DNA of 64,000 nt from Candidatus Methanoplasma cognatum (GTDB lineage Archaea > Thermoplasmatota > Thermoplasmata > Methanomassiliicoccales > Methanomethylophilaceae), in assembly GCA_009777615.1 (NCBI GenBank), contig WRLM01000004.1, forward strand, positions 124,001 to 188,000, in the 5' to 3' direction. Positions 10,692 through 15,614 of this stretch are shown here, one piece after another. A program made the translations under genes and the position numbers. How positions within the stretch are numbered: position 1 is the stretch's first letter; each line of letters begins with the position of its first letter. The notes under the pieces are model-generated. The model was given only the letters and a program-made list of their open reading frames with translations. It searched no databases and was not told where the DNA came from.

Positions 10692-11867
10692 ATGTATCTT
10701 ACCAGGGATGAAGAGGAGATGCTCGCCGGCGAAGACGGCGAGAGCTGCCGAAAGGCCATGGAGCTTGTTGTGGCGCTCGGTAAGATATACGGAGCGGAGG
10801 ATCTTATCGACATAACGTCAGCACATCTTTCGGGCGCGTCCTACAAGACGATAGGGGACGGCGGCGTGAAGTATCTGGAAGATATGGTGAAGGGAGGGGC
10901 GAGAGTTTCAGTCCCCTCCACGCTGAACCCGATCGGGATGGACAGGGAAAGATGGAAGGAGATGCACATACCTCCTGCGTTCGCGGAGAAGCAGCTGAAG
11001 ATAATCGATCTGTATAAGAGAATGGGGGTCAGGGCCACCTGCTCATGCACCCCTTACCTGGAGGACAACGTTCCCTCTTTGGGGGATCACGTCGCATGGG
11101 CTGAATCCTCCGCTTTATCGTTCGTGAATTCATACATCGGAGCAAGGACCAACAGAGAAGGGGGGCCGGGAGCGCTCGCGGCGGCGATAATAGGCAGGAC
11201 CGCAAACTATGGTCTCCACATAGACGAGAACAGAAAGCCCACGGTCGTCATAGACGCGGAGACCGACGGGTCGGTGTTCAGCTACTCGATGCTCGGGCAG
11301 GCCGTGGGGATGTCGATAGGCGGCGGCATACCTTATTTCAGAGGAGTCGAGCCAACCGTTGACGACGCGAAGACGATGTCTGCGGCGATGGCGGCCTCAG
11401 GTTCGGTCGCTTTGTATCACGTCGAAGGGGTCACTCCGGAAGCCGGGAACTTTGACATAAGCGGACTGGAAACAATATCGATAGGCAGAAAGGAGCTCAA
11501 GGATGCATATGACAAACTGAACACGGCGGAAGATGTTCAGCTCATAGCGCTGGGCTGTCCGCATCTGAGCCGGAAAGAGATGAAGGACATCGCCGCATTC
11601 CTAAAAGGGAAGAAAAAGAAGAACAAGGACGTTGAGATCTGGTTCTGCACATCTTCAAAGATACGCGAAGAATGTGCTGAGGAAGTAAGGATAATGGAGG
11701 AATTCGGCCCCGTATTGGCGGACACCTGCATGGTGGTCTCGCCGATAGAAGGGATATTCAAGAGGACCGGCACAAACTCCGCAAAGGCCGGCAACTATCT
11801 TCCCACGCTGTGCTCTCAGGATGTCGTGTGCAAGGACATCTCAAAGCTGATGGAGGTCGTGATTTGA
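10692..11867 (+). CDS. Phosphomevalonate dehydratase large subunit (AcnX / DUF521)
   Basis: The 391-residue aconitase-X catalytic subunit starts MYLTRDEEEMLAGEDG and carries LIDITSAHLSGASYKTIGDG, a CSCTPYLEDNVP segment and a late TNSAKAGNYLP segment, all typical of AcnX. In archaea this enzyme, with its small subunit and an Fe-S cluster, dehydrates (R)-5-phosphomevalonate to trans-anhydromevalonate 5-phosphate in the archaeal mevalonate pathway (established in Aeropyrum). The small subunit is encoded next, overlapping by four bases. The decarboxylase of the next step is not in this window. Other AcnX enzymes act on hydroxyproline derivatives, but the archaeal setting favours isoprenoid synthesis. 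Confidence 0.88.
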   Translation: MYLTRDEEEMLAGEDGESCRKAMELVVALGKIYGAEDLIDITSAHLSGASYKTIGDGGVKYLEDMVKGGARVSVPSTLNPIGMDRERWKEMHIPPAFAEKQLKIIDLYKRMGVRATCSCTPYLEDNVPSLGDHVAWAESSALSFVNSYIGARTNREGGPGALAAAIIGRTANYGLHIDENRKPTVVIDAETDGSVFSYSMLGQAVGMSIGGGIPYFRGVEPTVDDAKTMSAAMAASGSVALYHVEGVTPEAGNFDISGLETISIGRKELKDAYDKLNTAEDVQLIALGCPHLSRKEMKDIAAFLKGKKKKNKDVEIWFCTSSKIREECAEEVRIMEEFGPVLADTCMVVSPIEGIFKRTGTNSAKAGNYLPTLCSQDVVCKDISKLMEVVI

Positions 11868-12646
11868 TACTGCAGGGAAGGGCGATATCATCCGGAAGGG
11901 TCGAAGGAAAGGTCCTGAAGCTGAACGGGACGTTCAGTTTCCTCGGAGGCGTTAATGCGTCAACCGGAGACCTCAACGTCGGAGAAGGAAACATCGCGGG
12001 GAAGGTATTCGTTTTCCGCGGGGGAAAGGGGAGCACAGTGGGTTCGTTTGTCATGTACGACCTGATGGTCCACGGCAAAGCGCCGATAGCGGTCGTGAAC
12101 AGCACGGCGGAGACGATAGTCACCACCGGCGCGGTGATATCTTCGATACCGATGGTGGATATGATAGATATCGATGTTCTTTTTGACGGTGATGAAGTAA
12201 TCGTCGACGGAGACAGCGGAACCGTTGAGATAAAGGGAATCAAAGTGATCAAAACGGCGTCCTGCGCCCTTCTCAACGAGAGCGGAAAGGTCCTTCTGCT
12301 ACAGCGCCCGGAGGATGCGAGATCATTTCCGGGGTGGAGGTCACTCGTCGCAGGGAAGGTAGAGGTCGGAGAGGATCCGGAGGATACCGCCGTAAGAGAG
12401 ATAATGGAAGAGACGCAGATCTCTGTTTCAAAGCCTGTAGCGCGTCTGCCGCCCGTGTACGTAAGGGAAAAGGACGTCATATGGGAGGTCTACCCCTTCC
12501 TTTTCAGGGTGAGGGATCAGGACCCTAAGCTCAACAAAGAGAATGTGGGATATGAGTGGGTCATCCCGGATGATCTGAAGGGAGACATGTCCGCAGTCCC
12601 GCTGACGCATGAGGTCGTAAGCAAAATGTTAAAAGGGTTGGAATGA
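11864..12646 (+). CDS. AcnX small (swivel) subunit fused to a Nudix hydrolase domain
   Basis: The 260-residue protein starts at TTG 11864, overlapping the large-subunit stop, with GGAGGT 6 bases upstream; no ATG start fits as well. Residues 1-125 are the DUF126 swivel subunit of phosphomevalonate dehydratase (GRAISSGRVEGKVL, then GGKGSTVGSFVMYDL). Residues about 130-255 are a Nudix domain with box GKVEVGE-x7-REIMEETQI at about 163-184. The catalytic REUxEE is intact, but the usual last glycine is Gln. Swivel subunits are normally stand-alone. The fusion suggests a Nudix activity on an isoprenoid phosphate (inference). Confidence 0.85.
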   Translation: MILQGRAISSGRVEGKVLKLNGTFSFLGGVNASTGDLNVGEGNIAGKVFVFRGGKGSTVGSFVMYDLMVHGKAPIAVVNSTAETIVTTGAVISSIPMVDMIDIDVLFDGDEVIVDGDSGTVEIKGIKVIKTASCALLNESGKVLLLQRPEDARSFPGWRSLVAGKVEVGEDPEDTAVREIMEETQISVSKPVARLPPVYVREKDVIWEVYPFLFRVRDQDPKLNKENVGYEWVIPDDLKGDMSAVPLTHEVVSKMLKGLE

Positions 12647-12662: not shown

Positions 12663-15614
12663 TCATTGTTCGGCTGAGCTTATGCCTATGACGATGTCCT
12701 TCCCGGTCACGTCCCAGGTCTTCACTTCGTCTCCCCCCGGGCTGTCCGTGAAGACGAGCTTCTTCGCTCTGACCTCTGCCGATATGTGCTCCTCCCAGTT
12801 CTTGAAGAGGTCTATGAGATAGGGCTCCGCACTGACGTCGCAGTTGATGTACTGTTCAACGTTGAGTTTCATGTCCTTTCTCATCTGCTGGATCCTTCTG
12901 ATGAGTTCCCTCGCGTAGCCTTCGGCCTCTATCTCAGGAGTTACGTCGAAATCAATGAAGATCCGCCCGCCGTCGAATTCCGCGCCTTCCAGGCCCTCAA
13001 CGTCGCCGTCCGACGCCGCATACCTTATCTTCTTTATGTTCCCCTGCTGTGCCAGGACATCTTCGAAGACAGATATGGAATCATTTACGCCGTCGTCCCC
13101 TCTGATGAATATCTGTTTCAGGGGCCATCTGAGCTTACTCCCCATCTTCGCCCTCTCGGCGGCGACGACCTCGATCACATTCTGGATCAGATACATGCTG
13201 CGTTCCAGATCGTCGTCGATGAGGGTCTCGTCGCATGTGATCCAGTCCTCCATGTGGACCGACGGCTTCGTACCGCCCATATGCTGGTACACTTCCTCGG
13301 ATATGTGCGGCGTGAGCGGCGCCAGCAGCAGGGCGGTGTTCATGATGGATTGGTGCAGGGTGAAATAGGATGCCATTTTATCGTCGTACGAATCGTTCTC
13401 TTCGCTCCAGCTCCTGTCCCTGACCAGACGGACGTACCAGCGGGAGAGGTCTTCCATGATATAATCCTCGAGCGCTCTCGCGACCTTGTGGAGCTCCCTC
13501 GATTCAAGTCCCTGCGTAACGGCTTTCTTTACCTTTTCGGTTCTGGAAAGCATCCATTTGTCCTCTTTTCTCAGGTCCTTGCATACGCTCTCAGCGGTGT
13601 GGGCGGACGGATCGTAGTTGTCGATCATCATATAAGTGGATGCGAAATTCACGACGTTCCAGTATGTGTTAAGGACCTTCCTCGCGTTCTTGGGCCCGTC
13701 CTTTTGGAATGCGGTGTCCTCCCACGGCGCGTTAGCCCTTATCAGGTACAGCCTCAGGGAGTCGGCTCCGAGCTCGTTTATTATCTCCATCGGCTCTATG
13801 ACGTTGCCTTTGGACTTCGACATCTTCTGTCCCTTCGGATCGAGCACCCATCCGTGCATCATGACCTCGTCGTAAGGCGCGCGGCCGAACGAGACCACGC
13901 CGGCTCCCAGCTGGGTGTAGAACCATCCTCTTGTCTGGTCATGCGCTTCGATGATGAACCTTCCGAATCCCCAGGTGTCGAAATCCTCTTTCTTTGCCGG
14001 ATATGAAAGCTGCGCCCACGCCGCCACGCCGGAGTCGAACCAGACGTCCAGGACGTCCTTCACTCTGTGCATGACGGAACCGCATTTACCGCAGGTGAAC
14101 GTGACCTCGTCGATCCACGGCCGGTGGGTATCCATCCCGTCCTTGTATCCGTTCCCTTCGCGGAGGTCTTTGTACTGTCCCACTACATGCATCTCTCCGC
14201 ACTCGCATTCCCAGACCGGTATCGGTATCCCCCAGTATCTCTGGCGGGATACGCACCATTCCCTGGCTCCTTCGACCCAGTTCTTCTCTCTCGAACCCCC
14301 TGCCCATTCCGGCACCCATTTGACGCGGTCTATTTCGCCGAGCATCTGCTCTTTTATTTCGGGTATGCCGATGAACCATTGGCGGGTGTTCCTGTATATG
14401 ATGGGGGTCTTGCATCTCCAGCAGTGTCCGTACCTGTGTTTCGCTTTGTCGGAATTGAAAAGCAGTCCCTTCTCGCCGAGATACTTTATAAGGTCGTCGT
14501 TGGCCGCTCTCACCTTTTTGTCGGTCATCATCGGGAACTCCTTCGTGAACCTTCCCGACTCGCCCACGGGACAGAAGGGTTCGATCCCGTATCTTTTTCC
14601 GCTTTCGTAATCGTCAGGACCGAATCCCGGCGCAGTGTGTACCAGGCCGGTGTTGTCCTTCTCCACATAATCTGCGTTCAGGACCTTGAACGTCCACTCG
14701 CTTCTTTTGAGATGCTCGGGGCTTATGTCGAAGGGAGGGAGATATTCGAGACCTTCAAGCTCTTTTCCAGTCATGCGTTCGATCACTTCGAATCTCTCGT
14801 AGCCTCCTTTCTTCGATACGTACTCCGCCTGAGAGAGCATGCATATCACGATCTCCTCTTTATCATCCGATGCGAGCCTTATCTTCGCATATTCAAATTC
14901 CGGATGCGCGGCCACCGCCATATTGGACGGAAGGGTCCACGGAGTGGTCGTCCATATGATCAGTGAGACTCCGTTATCTTTTACAAGAGGGAACCGCACC
15001 ATCACCGAAGGGTCCGTCTCATCCCAGTATTCTATCTCGGCCTCGGCCAGCGCGGTCTCGCATCTCGGGCACCATGTGACCACTTTGCTGGAAGGTCCCA
15101 GCAGCCCCCGCTCATGCGCGCGCCGGACCGTCCACCATGCGGATTCCAGGAAGTCCGGTTTAAGCGTTTGGTAAGGGTTGTCCCAGTCCATCCAGACGCC
15201 GAGCTGTTTGAACTGATCAGTCATGCTCTCCCTGAGCTCGCTGGCAAATTTCTTGCATGTGTCGACGAACTTGCCGATGCCTATCTCCTCTATCTCCTTC
15301 TTAGAATGGACGCCTATCTTCTTTTCGACCTGGACCTCGATCGGAAGGCCGTGCATATCGAACCCAGGCTGATCGCGGACATTATAACCCTTCATCCTGA
15401 GATATCTTATCATTATGTCCTTCAGGGTCTTGTTCATCGCGGTCCCCAAGTGAATGGATCCCGTCGTATACGGCGGACCGTCGAGGAAGTGAAATCTCTC
15501 CCCTCCGGATCTCAGTTCTTTGGTCTTTTCGTAAGCTTTGGAGGAGACCCAGAATTCTTGGATCTCCTTTTCTATCGTTGGCGCATCATAGTTCGCGCGG
15601 ACCTGCTTTATCAT
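12663..15614 (-). CDS. ileS: Isoleucyl-tRNA synthetase
   Basis: This is a full-length 983-residue class I synthetase. The HIGH-like HLGTA lies near residue 57 (PPYTTGSIHLGTA) and KMSKSKGN near residue 600, with the editing domain between (TTTPWTLPSNMAVAAHP). The C-terminal half holds the anticodon-binding helices. It lacks a bacterial C-terminal zinc finger, as expected for the archaeal/eukaryotic-like type. GAGGA precedes the ATG, and a minus-strand TATA-like AAATATTTAA lies near 15675-15685. It converges with the AcnX-Nudix gene. Confidence 0.96.
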   Translation of the reverse strand: MIKQVRANYDAPTIEKEIQEFWVSSKAYEKTKELRSGGERFHFLDGPPYTTGSIHLGTAMNKTLKDIMIRYLRMKGYNVRDQPGFDMHGLPIEVQVEKKIGVHSKKEIEEIGIGKFVDTCKKFASELRESMTDQFKQLGVWMDWDNPYQTLKPDFLESAWWTVRRAHERGLLGPSSKVVTWCPRCETALAEAEIEYWDETDPSVMVRFPLVKDNGVSLIIWTTTPWTLPSNMAVAAHPEFEYAKIRLASDDKEEIVICMLSQAEYVSKKGGYERFEVIERMTGKELEGLEYLPPFDISPEHLKRSEWTFKVLNADYVEKDNTGLVHTAPGFGPDDYESGKRYGIEPFCPVGESGRFTKEFPMMTDKKVRAANDDLIKYLGEKGLLFNSDKAKHRYGHCWRCKTPIIYRNTRQWFIGIPEIKEQMLGEIDRVKWVPEWAGGSREKNWVEGAREWCVSRQRYWGIPIPVWECECGEMHVVGQYKDLREGNGYKDGMDTHRPWIDEVTFTCGKCGSVMHRVKDVLDVWFDSGVAAWAQLSYPAKKEDFDTWGFGRFIIEAHDQTRGWFYTQLGAGVVSFGRAPYDEVMMHGWVLDPKGQKMSKSKGNVIEPMEIINELGADSLRLYLIRANAPWEDTAFQKDGPKNARKVLNTYWNVVNFASTYMMIDNYDPSAHTAESVCKDLRKEDKWMLSRTEKVKKAVTQGLESRELHKVARALEDYIMEDLSRWYVRLVRDRSWSEENDSYDDKMASYFTLHQSIMNTALLLAPLTPHISEEVYQHMGGTKPSVHMEDWITCDETLIDDDLERSMYLIQNVIEVVAAERAKMGSKLRWPLKQIFIRGDDGVNDSISVFEDVLAQQGNIKKIRYAASDGDVEGLEGAEFDGGRIFIDFDVTPEIEAEGYARELIRRIQQMRKDMKLNVEQYINCDVSAEPYLIDLFKNWEEHISAEVRAKKLVFTDSPGGDEVKTWDVTGKDIVIGISSAEQ

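What the first reader, a model, noticed from the sequence alone, without database searches (positions are those of the whole stretch)
11864..12646. AcnX small subunit fused to a Nudix hydrolase
The swivel subunit of phosphomevalonate dehydratase is normally a separate protein of about 130-140 residues. Here it continues in frame into a Nudix domain with an intact REUxEE catalytic core, right after the large-subunit gene. A physical link between the archaeal mevalonate pathway and a Nudix activity suggests control or salvage of isoprenoid phosphates, for example hydrolysing isopentenyl diphosphate, or sanitising a side product.
Basis: partly seen in the sequence, partly recalled or inferred. 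Interest (0 to 1): 0.62.

Follow-up and report, generated by a model that had tools for sequence, protein, structure and literature searches.

The report
Mevalonate-pathway subunit fused to Nudix hydrolase
In a whole order of methane-producing archaea, the small subunit of an enzyme that makes membrane-lipid precursors is joined to an intact Nudix hydrolase; the fusion is real and old, but relatives that lost the lipid enzyme keep the Nudix half, so it probably does a separate job, perhaps on nucleotides, rather than controlling lipid synthesis.

Summary
ORF 11864-12646 (TTG start, overlapping the AcnX large-subunit stop) encodes 260 aa: an AcnX swivel domain (aa ~1-124, PF01989, 1e-22) joined without a linker to a Nudix domain (aa ~128-250, PF00293, 8e-19). 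It is neither an assembly error nor unique. In Methanomassiliicoccales, 132 of 147 genomes carry it full length in one frame (all 30 genera, several closed genomes), and it occurs in a few other Thermoplasmata families. Nudix residues R148, G164, E167, E179, E182, E183 are identical in 58/58 fusions. The swivel keeps the residues that catalyse in the crystallised phosphomevalonate dehydratase (PMDh) and is the genome's only copy, so it is very likely the working PMDh subunit.

The proposed isoprenoid control is not supported. Where PMDh was lost (Ca. Sysuiplasma; genera g31/g37) or a separate swivel exists (f12, bin33), the fused swivel decays while the Nudix site stays intact. Other PMDh users lack the Nudix. 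Stand-alone relatives sit next to the NMN deamidase PncC in Dehalococcoidia and are fused to an IF-2B domain in Hecatella, favouring an ADP-ribose-like substrate. DMAPP-to-DMAP supply for prenyl-FMN remains possible. No paper found mentions the fusion. New architecture of known parts; substrate untested.

The parts
10692..11867 (+). AcnX large subunit (phosphomevalonate dehydratase large subunit), 391 aa
   Evidence: PF04412 E 1.8e-151; 7CNR chain A E 2e-104. Residues of TkAcnX-L that bind the cluster or substrate (C110, C283, C342, N79, E129, S130, S131, K361, Y365; PMC8184944) are identical in the alignment; N53 is T and V49 is A here.
11864..12646 (+). Fusion gene: AcnX swivel (small subunit) + Nudix hydrolase, 260 aa, TTG start overlapping the upstream stop (TTGA)
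   Evidence: order-wide full-length matches; model pLDDT 96
11864..12235 (+). Swivel / DUF126 domain, aa 1-124, the only DUF126 copy in the genome
   Evidence: PF01989, one copy in G000, 7CNR_B E 1.4e-29 by sequence and 51% identity by fold
12029..12046 (+). GSTVGS motif (aa 56-61): S57, T58, V59 correspond to TkAcnX-S Ser62, Thr63, Val64 (catalytic base / carboxylate binding)
   Evidence: alignment (PDB file numbering is one higher than the paper's), residue roles; invariant 58/58
12245..12646 (+). Nudix domain, aa ~128-260
   Evidence: PF00293 aa 131-239 E 7.6e-19; fold matches 3GRN, 1VC8, 3EES
12353..12421 (+). Nudix box G164-I186 (GKVEVGEDPEDTAVREIMEETQI)
   Evidence: G164, E167, E179, E182, E183 invariant in 58 fusions and in the 36-row alignments
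12663..15614 (-). Isoleucyl-tRNA synthetase gene, convergent; synteny marker that locates the decayed copy in Ca. Sysuiplasma
   Evidence: translation (named by inspection); homologue found convergent beside the fusion in many loci of the order and beside the decayed copy in L181

Best explanation
The gene makes a two-job protein. Its N-terminal swivel domain assembles with the AcnX large subunit encoded just upstream to form phosphomevalonate dehydratase (mevalonate 5-phosphate to trans-anhydromevalonate 5-phosphate, with a [4Fe-4S] cluster): inferred from conserved active-site residues and from being the only copy. Its C-terminal domain is an active metal-dependent Nudix pyrophosphohydrolase: inferred from invariant catalytic residues and fold. 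The Nudix belongs to a family that is otherwise stand-alone in archaea and Dehalococcoidia, was joined to the C-terminus of the swivel in an ancestor of Methanomassiliicoccales and some relatives, and does a job of its own, most likely on an ADP-ribose- or NAD-like nucleotide diphosphate. The fusion probably gives shared expression and a fixed 1:1 ratio rather than control of the pathway. Shown by computation: architecture, conservation, distribution, decay of the swivel with retention of the Nudix. Inferred: both activities, the Nudix substrate, and the reason for the fusion.
For: Architecture and fold. Order-wide full-length fusion in 132/147 genomes, all 30 genera, with catalytic residues invariant in 58/58. 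Swivel looks functional: S57/T58/V59/L27 equal TkAcnX-S Ser62/Thr63/Val64/Leu27, and it is the sole DUF126 even in family-f7 genomes where the large subunit lies on another contig (G184, G308, G374, G399). Nudix is independent of PMDh: in g31/g37 genomes G150, G335, G227 no AcnX large or small subunit passes the cut-off, and in Ca. Sysuiplasma (G401) no DUF126, UbiX or UbiD is found and no AcnX large subunit lies upstream, yet a Nudix remains behind a swivel remnant; in the sequences read (L181, L102, L104) the catalytic core is intact and the swivel has lost SFLGG and GSTVGS. f12 and bin33 have a separate intact DUF126 and a decayed fused one. Family f8 runs PMDh with a stand-alone DUF126 and no full fusion match. 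Nucleotide context: in Dehalococcoidia and similar bacteria the stand-alone relative lies within 150 bp downstream of PncC/CinA-C (PF02464) in 18 loci, with CinA within 3 kb in 24; PncC is elsewhere fused to an ADP-ribose pyrophosphatase domain (PMC3680494). In Ca. Hecatella the Nudix is fused to an IF-2B domain.
Against: The substrate is not shown by anything here. Sequence scores to known Nudix types are weak and scattered (dihydroneopterin triphosphate, MutT, NudI, Idi-1). Context of distant relatives may not carry over: the window's own family has a fast-diverged Nudix (branch 1.94) with fixed changes (S149P, A160S, S163A, D224N, H227N), which could mean a new substrate. Retention of the linkerless fusion across a whole order is longer than mere convenience would need.
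Confidence: 0.5

Rival explanations
1. Cofactor feed: the Nudix domain cleaves DMAPP to DMAP, the co-substrate of the flavin prenyltransferase UbiX, so the protein that makes trans-anhydromevalonate phosphate also supplies the precursor of prenyl-FMN, the cofactor expected for the next enzyme, the UbiD-family decarboxylase.
For: E. coli Nudix enzymes NudB/F/I/J dephosphorylate DMAPP to DMAP for prFMN (PMC12359138). The own genome has UbiX, a UbiD-family decarboxylase, IPK and Idi-2. In bin33 (G402) a UbiD-family gene, a gap of AcnX-large size, DUF126 and UbiX follow each other; in G238 UbiD pieces, AcnX large and the fusion follow each other, so the Nudix sits where UbiX sits.
Against: Ca. Sysuiplasma keeps the Nudix with no UbiX or UbiD found. 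Family f8 runs PMDh, UbiD and UbiX without the fusion. IPK may supply DMAP by its reverse reaction (own knowledge). Stand-alone relatives lie in NAD/nucleotide contexts.
Confidence: 0.17
2. Flux valve: the Nudix hydrolyses IPP (or GPP/GGPP) to the monophosphate, opposing IPK and adjusting the isoprenoid pool next to PMDh, as some plant Nudix enzymes do.
For: Intact site; IPK in all 42 genomes tested and Idi-2 over its cut-off in 38 of them, including those that lost PMDh, so the substrate pool exists wherever the Nudix persists.
Against: No isoprenoid-specific sequence signal; stand-alone relatives also occur in Dehalococcoidia, in nucleotide contexts; its absence from f8 and most of g31 shows it is dispensable.
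Confidence: 0.12
3. Idi-1-like isomerase: the Nudix fold is that of type I IPP isomerase and the domain isomerises IPP to DMAPP.
For: Weak profile match to isopentenyl-diphosphate isomerase (1.4e-7, 31.4 bits against a cut-off of 127) and Idi-1 structures among the Foldseek hits.
Against: Idi-2 is present in the own genome and in all order genomes tested, and the full REUxEE hydrolase core is kept. The active-site cysteine of type I isomerases (own knowledge) has no counterpart among the invariant residues of the Nudix half.
Confidence: 0.02
4. Sensor or scaffold: the Nudix domain binds a nucleotide and tunes PMDh allosterically, without needing turnover.
For: The model predicts a well-defined, linkerless contact between the domains (pTM 0.87); Nudix-derived sensors such as NrtR exist (own knowledge).
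Against: All catalytic residues are invariant, which a pure sensor would not need; the Nudix persists without PMDh.
Confidence: 0.1

Closest known systems
Archaeal phosphomevalonate dehydratase, AcnX type IIb (A. pernix Ape_2087.1/Ape_2089; T. kodakarensis AcnX, PDB 7CNR/7CNS)
   Same: Two-gene AcnX large and small subunits; same Fe-S and substrate residues, apart from N53T and V49A in the large subunit
   Different: Known small subunits are stand-alone (~130-140 aa); here the small subunit carries a C-terminal Nudix hydrolase
Stand-alone Nudix hydrolases of the DWEHxEY / WAxVSGY type in Thermoplasmatota, Nitrososphaeria, Bathyarchaeota and Dehalococcoidia
   Same: Same family as the Nudix half (alignment A3: 35-63% identity to the first row, same invariant residues)
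   Different: Not fused to a swivel; neighbours are PncC/CinA-C or a PIN-ATPase-KH protein, or the Nudix is fused to IF-2B
[quoted passage not shown]
   Same: Also a fusion that involves the AcnX swivel
   Different: Swivel fused to the large subunit, not to a Nudix; substrate residues differ
NadM-Nudix and COG1058-PncC fusions of NAD recycling
   Same: A pyrophosphatase fused to a metabolic enzyme
   Different: Partners are NAD enzymes, not a mevalonate-pathway subunit

Membership tests
AcnX type II / phosphomevalonate dehydratase small subunit | DUF126/AcnX swivel domain over the curated cut-off | tested here: met
   PF01989 80.1 bits vs 27
AcnX type II / phosphomevalonate dehydratase small subunit | Residues equal to TkAcnX-S Ser62, Thr63, Val64, Leu27 | tested here: met
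   S57, T58, V59, L27, each invariant 58/58
AcnX type II / phosphomevalonate dehydratase small subunit | Partner large subunit with three Fe-S cysteines and substrate residues | tested here: met
   Adjacent gene; C, E, S, K, Y residues conserved; phosphate-binding N53 is T
AcnX type II / phosphomevalonate dehydratase small subunit | Dehydration of mevalonate 5-phosphate | not testable with these tools
   No assay
AcnX type II / phosphomevalonate dehydratase small subunit | Rest of the modified mevalonate route in the genome (UbiD-family decarboxylase, UbiX, IPK, Idi-2) | tested here: met
   the decarboxylase is identified only as UbiD family
Nudix hydrolase | Nudix fold | tested here: met
   PF00293 68.5 bits vs 21.1; Foldseek 3GRN E 2e-12
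Nudix hydrolase | Nudix box Gx5Ex7REUxEExGU | tested here: met
   All catalytic positions present; the late G is Q in the window; core glutamates invariant 58/58
Nudix hydrolase | Mg/Mn-dependent cleavage of a diphosphate linked to another moiety | not testable with these tools
   No assay
ADP-ribose pyrophosphatase | Match to a curated ADP-ribose diphosphatase model over cut-off | tested here: not met
   TIGR00052 17.7 of 79.6 bits, PRK10729 16.9 of 248; the support is from the context of distant relatives only
Type I IPP isomerase | Match over the curated cut-off | tested here: not met
   31.4 of 127 bits; Idi-2 present instead

The most novel reading that the evidence does not exclude
The fusion is a metabolic short circuit: the Nudix half turns DMAPP into DMAP at the site where the substrate of the UbiD-family decarboxylase is made, so one protein both makes that enzyme's substrate and feeds synthesis of its prenyl-FMN cofactor; in the window's own family the Nudix has been re-tooled for this (fixed changes on a long branch).
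Probability: 0.13. Interest if true: 0.72.

Novelty: new variant of a known kind. Interest (0 to 1): 0.42.

Why it matters
It is an order-wide, ancient architecture for a key enzyme of archaeal membrane-lipid synthesis that no paper found in the held library mentions. The lineages that lost PMDh act as natural separation experiments: they show which half is kept for what. The protein also offers a direct test of where archaea get DMAP for prenyl-FMN, which I did not find addressed for archaea in the held papers, and it points to an uncharacterised Nudix family shared by archaea and Dehalococcoidia that is probably tied to NAD or ADP-ribose turnover.

Tried and rejected
Assembly error or local frameshift: rejected by 132 genomes with one frame. 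Fusion unique to this genome: rejected. Degraded Nudix site: rejected. Nudix as replacement for a missing isomerase: rejected for this order, Idi-2 present. Strict co-occurrence of Nudix and PMDh: rejected in both directions. Literature searches for the fusion, for Nudix with aconitase X or phosphomevalonate dehydratase, and for Nudix with eIF2B in archaea returned nothing. A first profile scan of genome contigs failed for lack of conserved words and was rerun with fewer rows. PDB sequence search gave no substrate-specific relative. Plasmid search gave only distant Nudix genes.

Full report
Observation. The ORF at 11864-12646 (+) starts with TTG, overlaps the stop of the upstream gene in TTGA, and codes for 260 aa. 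Pfam finds the AcnX swivel domain at aa 24-98 (1.1e-22) and a Nudix domain at aa 131-239 (7.6e-19); the upstream gene is the AcnX large subunit (1.8e-151). The junction has no linker: stand-alone small subunits in relatives end at the equivalent of aa ~124 and stand-alone Nudix relatives begin a few residues later. AlphaFold2 with 63 sequences gives pLDDT 96.2 and pTM 0.87, and Foldseek returns two separate domain matches, the T. kodakarensis AcnX small subunit and Nudix hydrolases.

Is it more than chance or an artefact? Yes. Within the order, 139 of 147 genomes match the fusion profile, 132 of them full length in one open frame; matches occur in all 30 genera. The other seven are six partial matches, several at contig ends, and one apparent frameshift; the eight genomes without a match are 61-91% complete. 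Record titles of relatives name the order Methanomassiliicoccales. Across 58 fusions the Nudix residues R148, G164, E167, E179, E182, E183, R201, W207, E226, W232 do not vary.

The swivel half works as a PMDh subunit (inferred). Its nearest solved relative is the small subunit of T. kodakarensis AcnX. Ser62, Thr63, Val64 and Leu27, which in that structure contact mevalonate 5-phosphate, lie by it, or are substrate-specific positions (PMC8184944), correspond to S57, T58, V59, L27 here, all invariant in the 58 (PDB file numbering is one higher than the paper's). The large subunit keeps the three cluster cysteines and the E/S/S/K/Y/N79 set; N53, one of the phosphate ligands, is T. The genome has one DUF126 copy, and it also has Idi-2, UbiX, a UbiD-family decarboxylase and IPK. 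In most f7 genomes with AcnX the large subunit lies on another contig, yet the fusion is still the only DUF126.

Where else? A phylum-wide search and a scan of named genomes show the fusion in several further Thermoplasmata families (f7, f10, f11; MAGs RS_9_17, KMA_Bin13/14, Aciduliprofundum sp. ARK-15). Elsewhere in the phylum the small subunit and the Nudix relative are separate genes. A maximum-likelihood tree of Nudix domains puts nearly all fused and formerly fused copies in one group (83/87, with two stand-alone rows inside), consistent with one main fusion; the bin33 fusion pairs with a stand-alone copy (100/100) and may be separate or a step of fission.

Natural separation experiments. 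In Ca. Sysuiplasma (G401) the profile search finds no DUF126, and UbiX and UbiD are not found; the gene still lies next to IleRS with no AcnX large subunit upstream; its swivel has lost SFLGG and GSTVGS, while the Nudix core RELKEE is intact. In f7 genera g31/g37 no AcnX large or small subunit passes the cut-off, yet G150, G335 and G227 keep a Nudix behind a swivel remnant. In f12 and bin33 a separate intact DUF126 exists and the fused one has decayed. Conversely, family f8 has PMDh with a stand-alone DUF126 and no full fusion match. So the swivel is kept only where PMDh needs it and the Nudix has a job of its own. Caveats: the missing genes rest largely on MAGs, and the AcnX large subunit was not searched genome-wide in G401.

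What might the Nudix do? Library scores do not name a substrate; the closest solved sequences are 3GRN (M. mazei MutT-like) and NudI. The context of stand-alone relatives is more telling. In Dehalococcoidia and similar bacteria the gene follows PncC/CinA-C (PF02464) within 150 bp in 18 loci, and CinA lies within 3 kb in 24. PncC is the NMN deamidase, which in many bacteria is fused to a different, COG1058-type ADP-ribose pyrophosphatase (PMC3680494); a Nudix beside a PncC is therefore a likely stand-in. In Ca. Hecatella the Nudix is fused to an IF-2B-family domain. In other Thermoplasmatota it follows a PIN-ATPase-KH gene, in a region with Trm5-, GGR- and GGGPS-like genes. This favours a nucleotide diphosphate substrate, by inference only; curated ADP-ribose models are not reached.

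The best rival is that the Nudix makes DMAP from DMAPP for prenyl-FMN. E. coli NudB/F/I/J have that activity (PMC12359138), and in bin33 UbiX directly follows DUF126 at the place the Nudix takes in the fusion. Against it stand Ca. Sysuiplasma, which lacks UbiX and UbiD but keeps the Nudix, and f8, which should need prFMN but lacks the fusion. The window's own family has a rapidly diverged Nudix (branch 1.94) with fixed changes S149P, A160S, S163A, D224N, H227N, so a changed substrate there is possible.

Verdict. Known parts in a new arrangement; no paper found in the held library mentions it.

Noticed in passing
G161:C1:1664079-1665724 and G183:C30:38596-40197 (family codes f26, f34): Single-frame AcnX (large and small domains in one 546-610 aa frame) in archaeal families f26 and f34, resembling the bacterial type I arrangement.
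   Followed up: no
G184, G238, G374, G399 (f7 genera g33, g54): No Idi-2 above the cut-off although PMDh and IPK are present; which isomerase they use is open.
   Followed up: no
L138:3420-4847: Nudix domain of the same family fused to an IF-2B domain in Ca. Hecatella orcuttiae.
   Followed up: partly
L133, L148, L169, L173, L178, L189, L194, L195 and other Dehalococcoidia-type loci: Conserved pair PncC/CinA-C then Nudix, close together on the same strand; a candidate NAD-recycling pair.
   Followed up: partly
G402:C1:2575587-2579291: UbiD-family gene, gap of AcnX-large size, DUF126, UbiX in a row: a candidate operon for PMDh, its next enzyme and that enzyme's cofactor.
   Followed up: partly
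window:7219-9785: Cluster of minus-strand ORFs whose translations contain several CxxC zinc-ribbon-like motifs upstream of the AcnX genes.
   Followed up: no
window:15777-16856: 359-aa ORF that looks like a DUF1016/PDDEXK nuclease-type protein (by eye, not searched).
   Followed up: no
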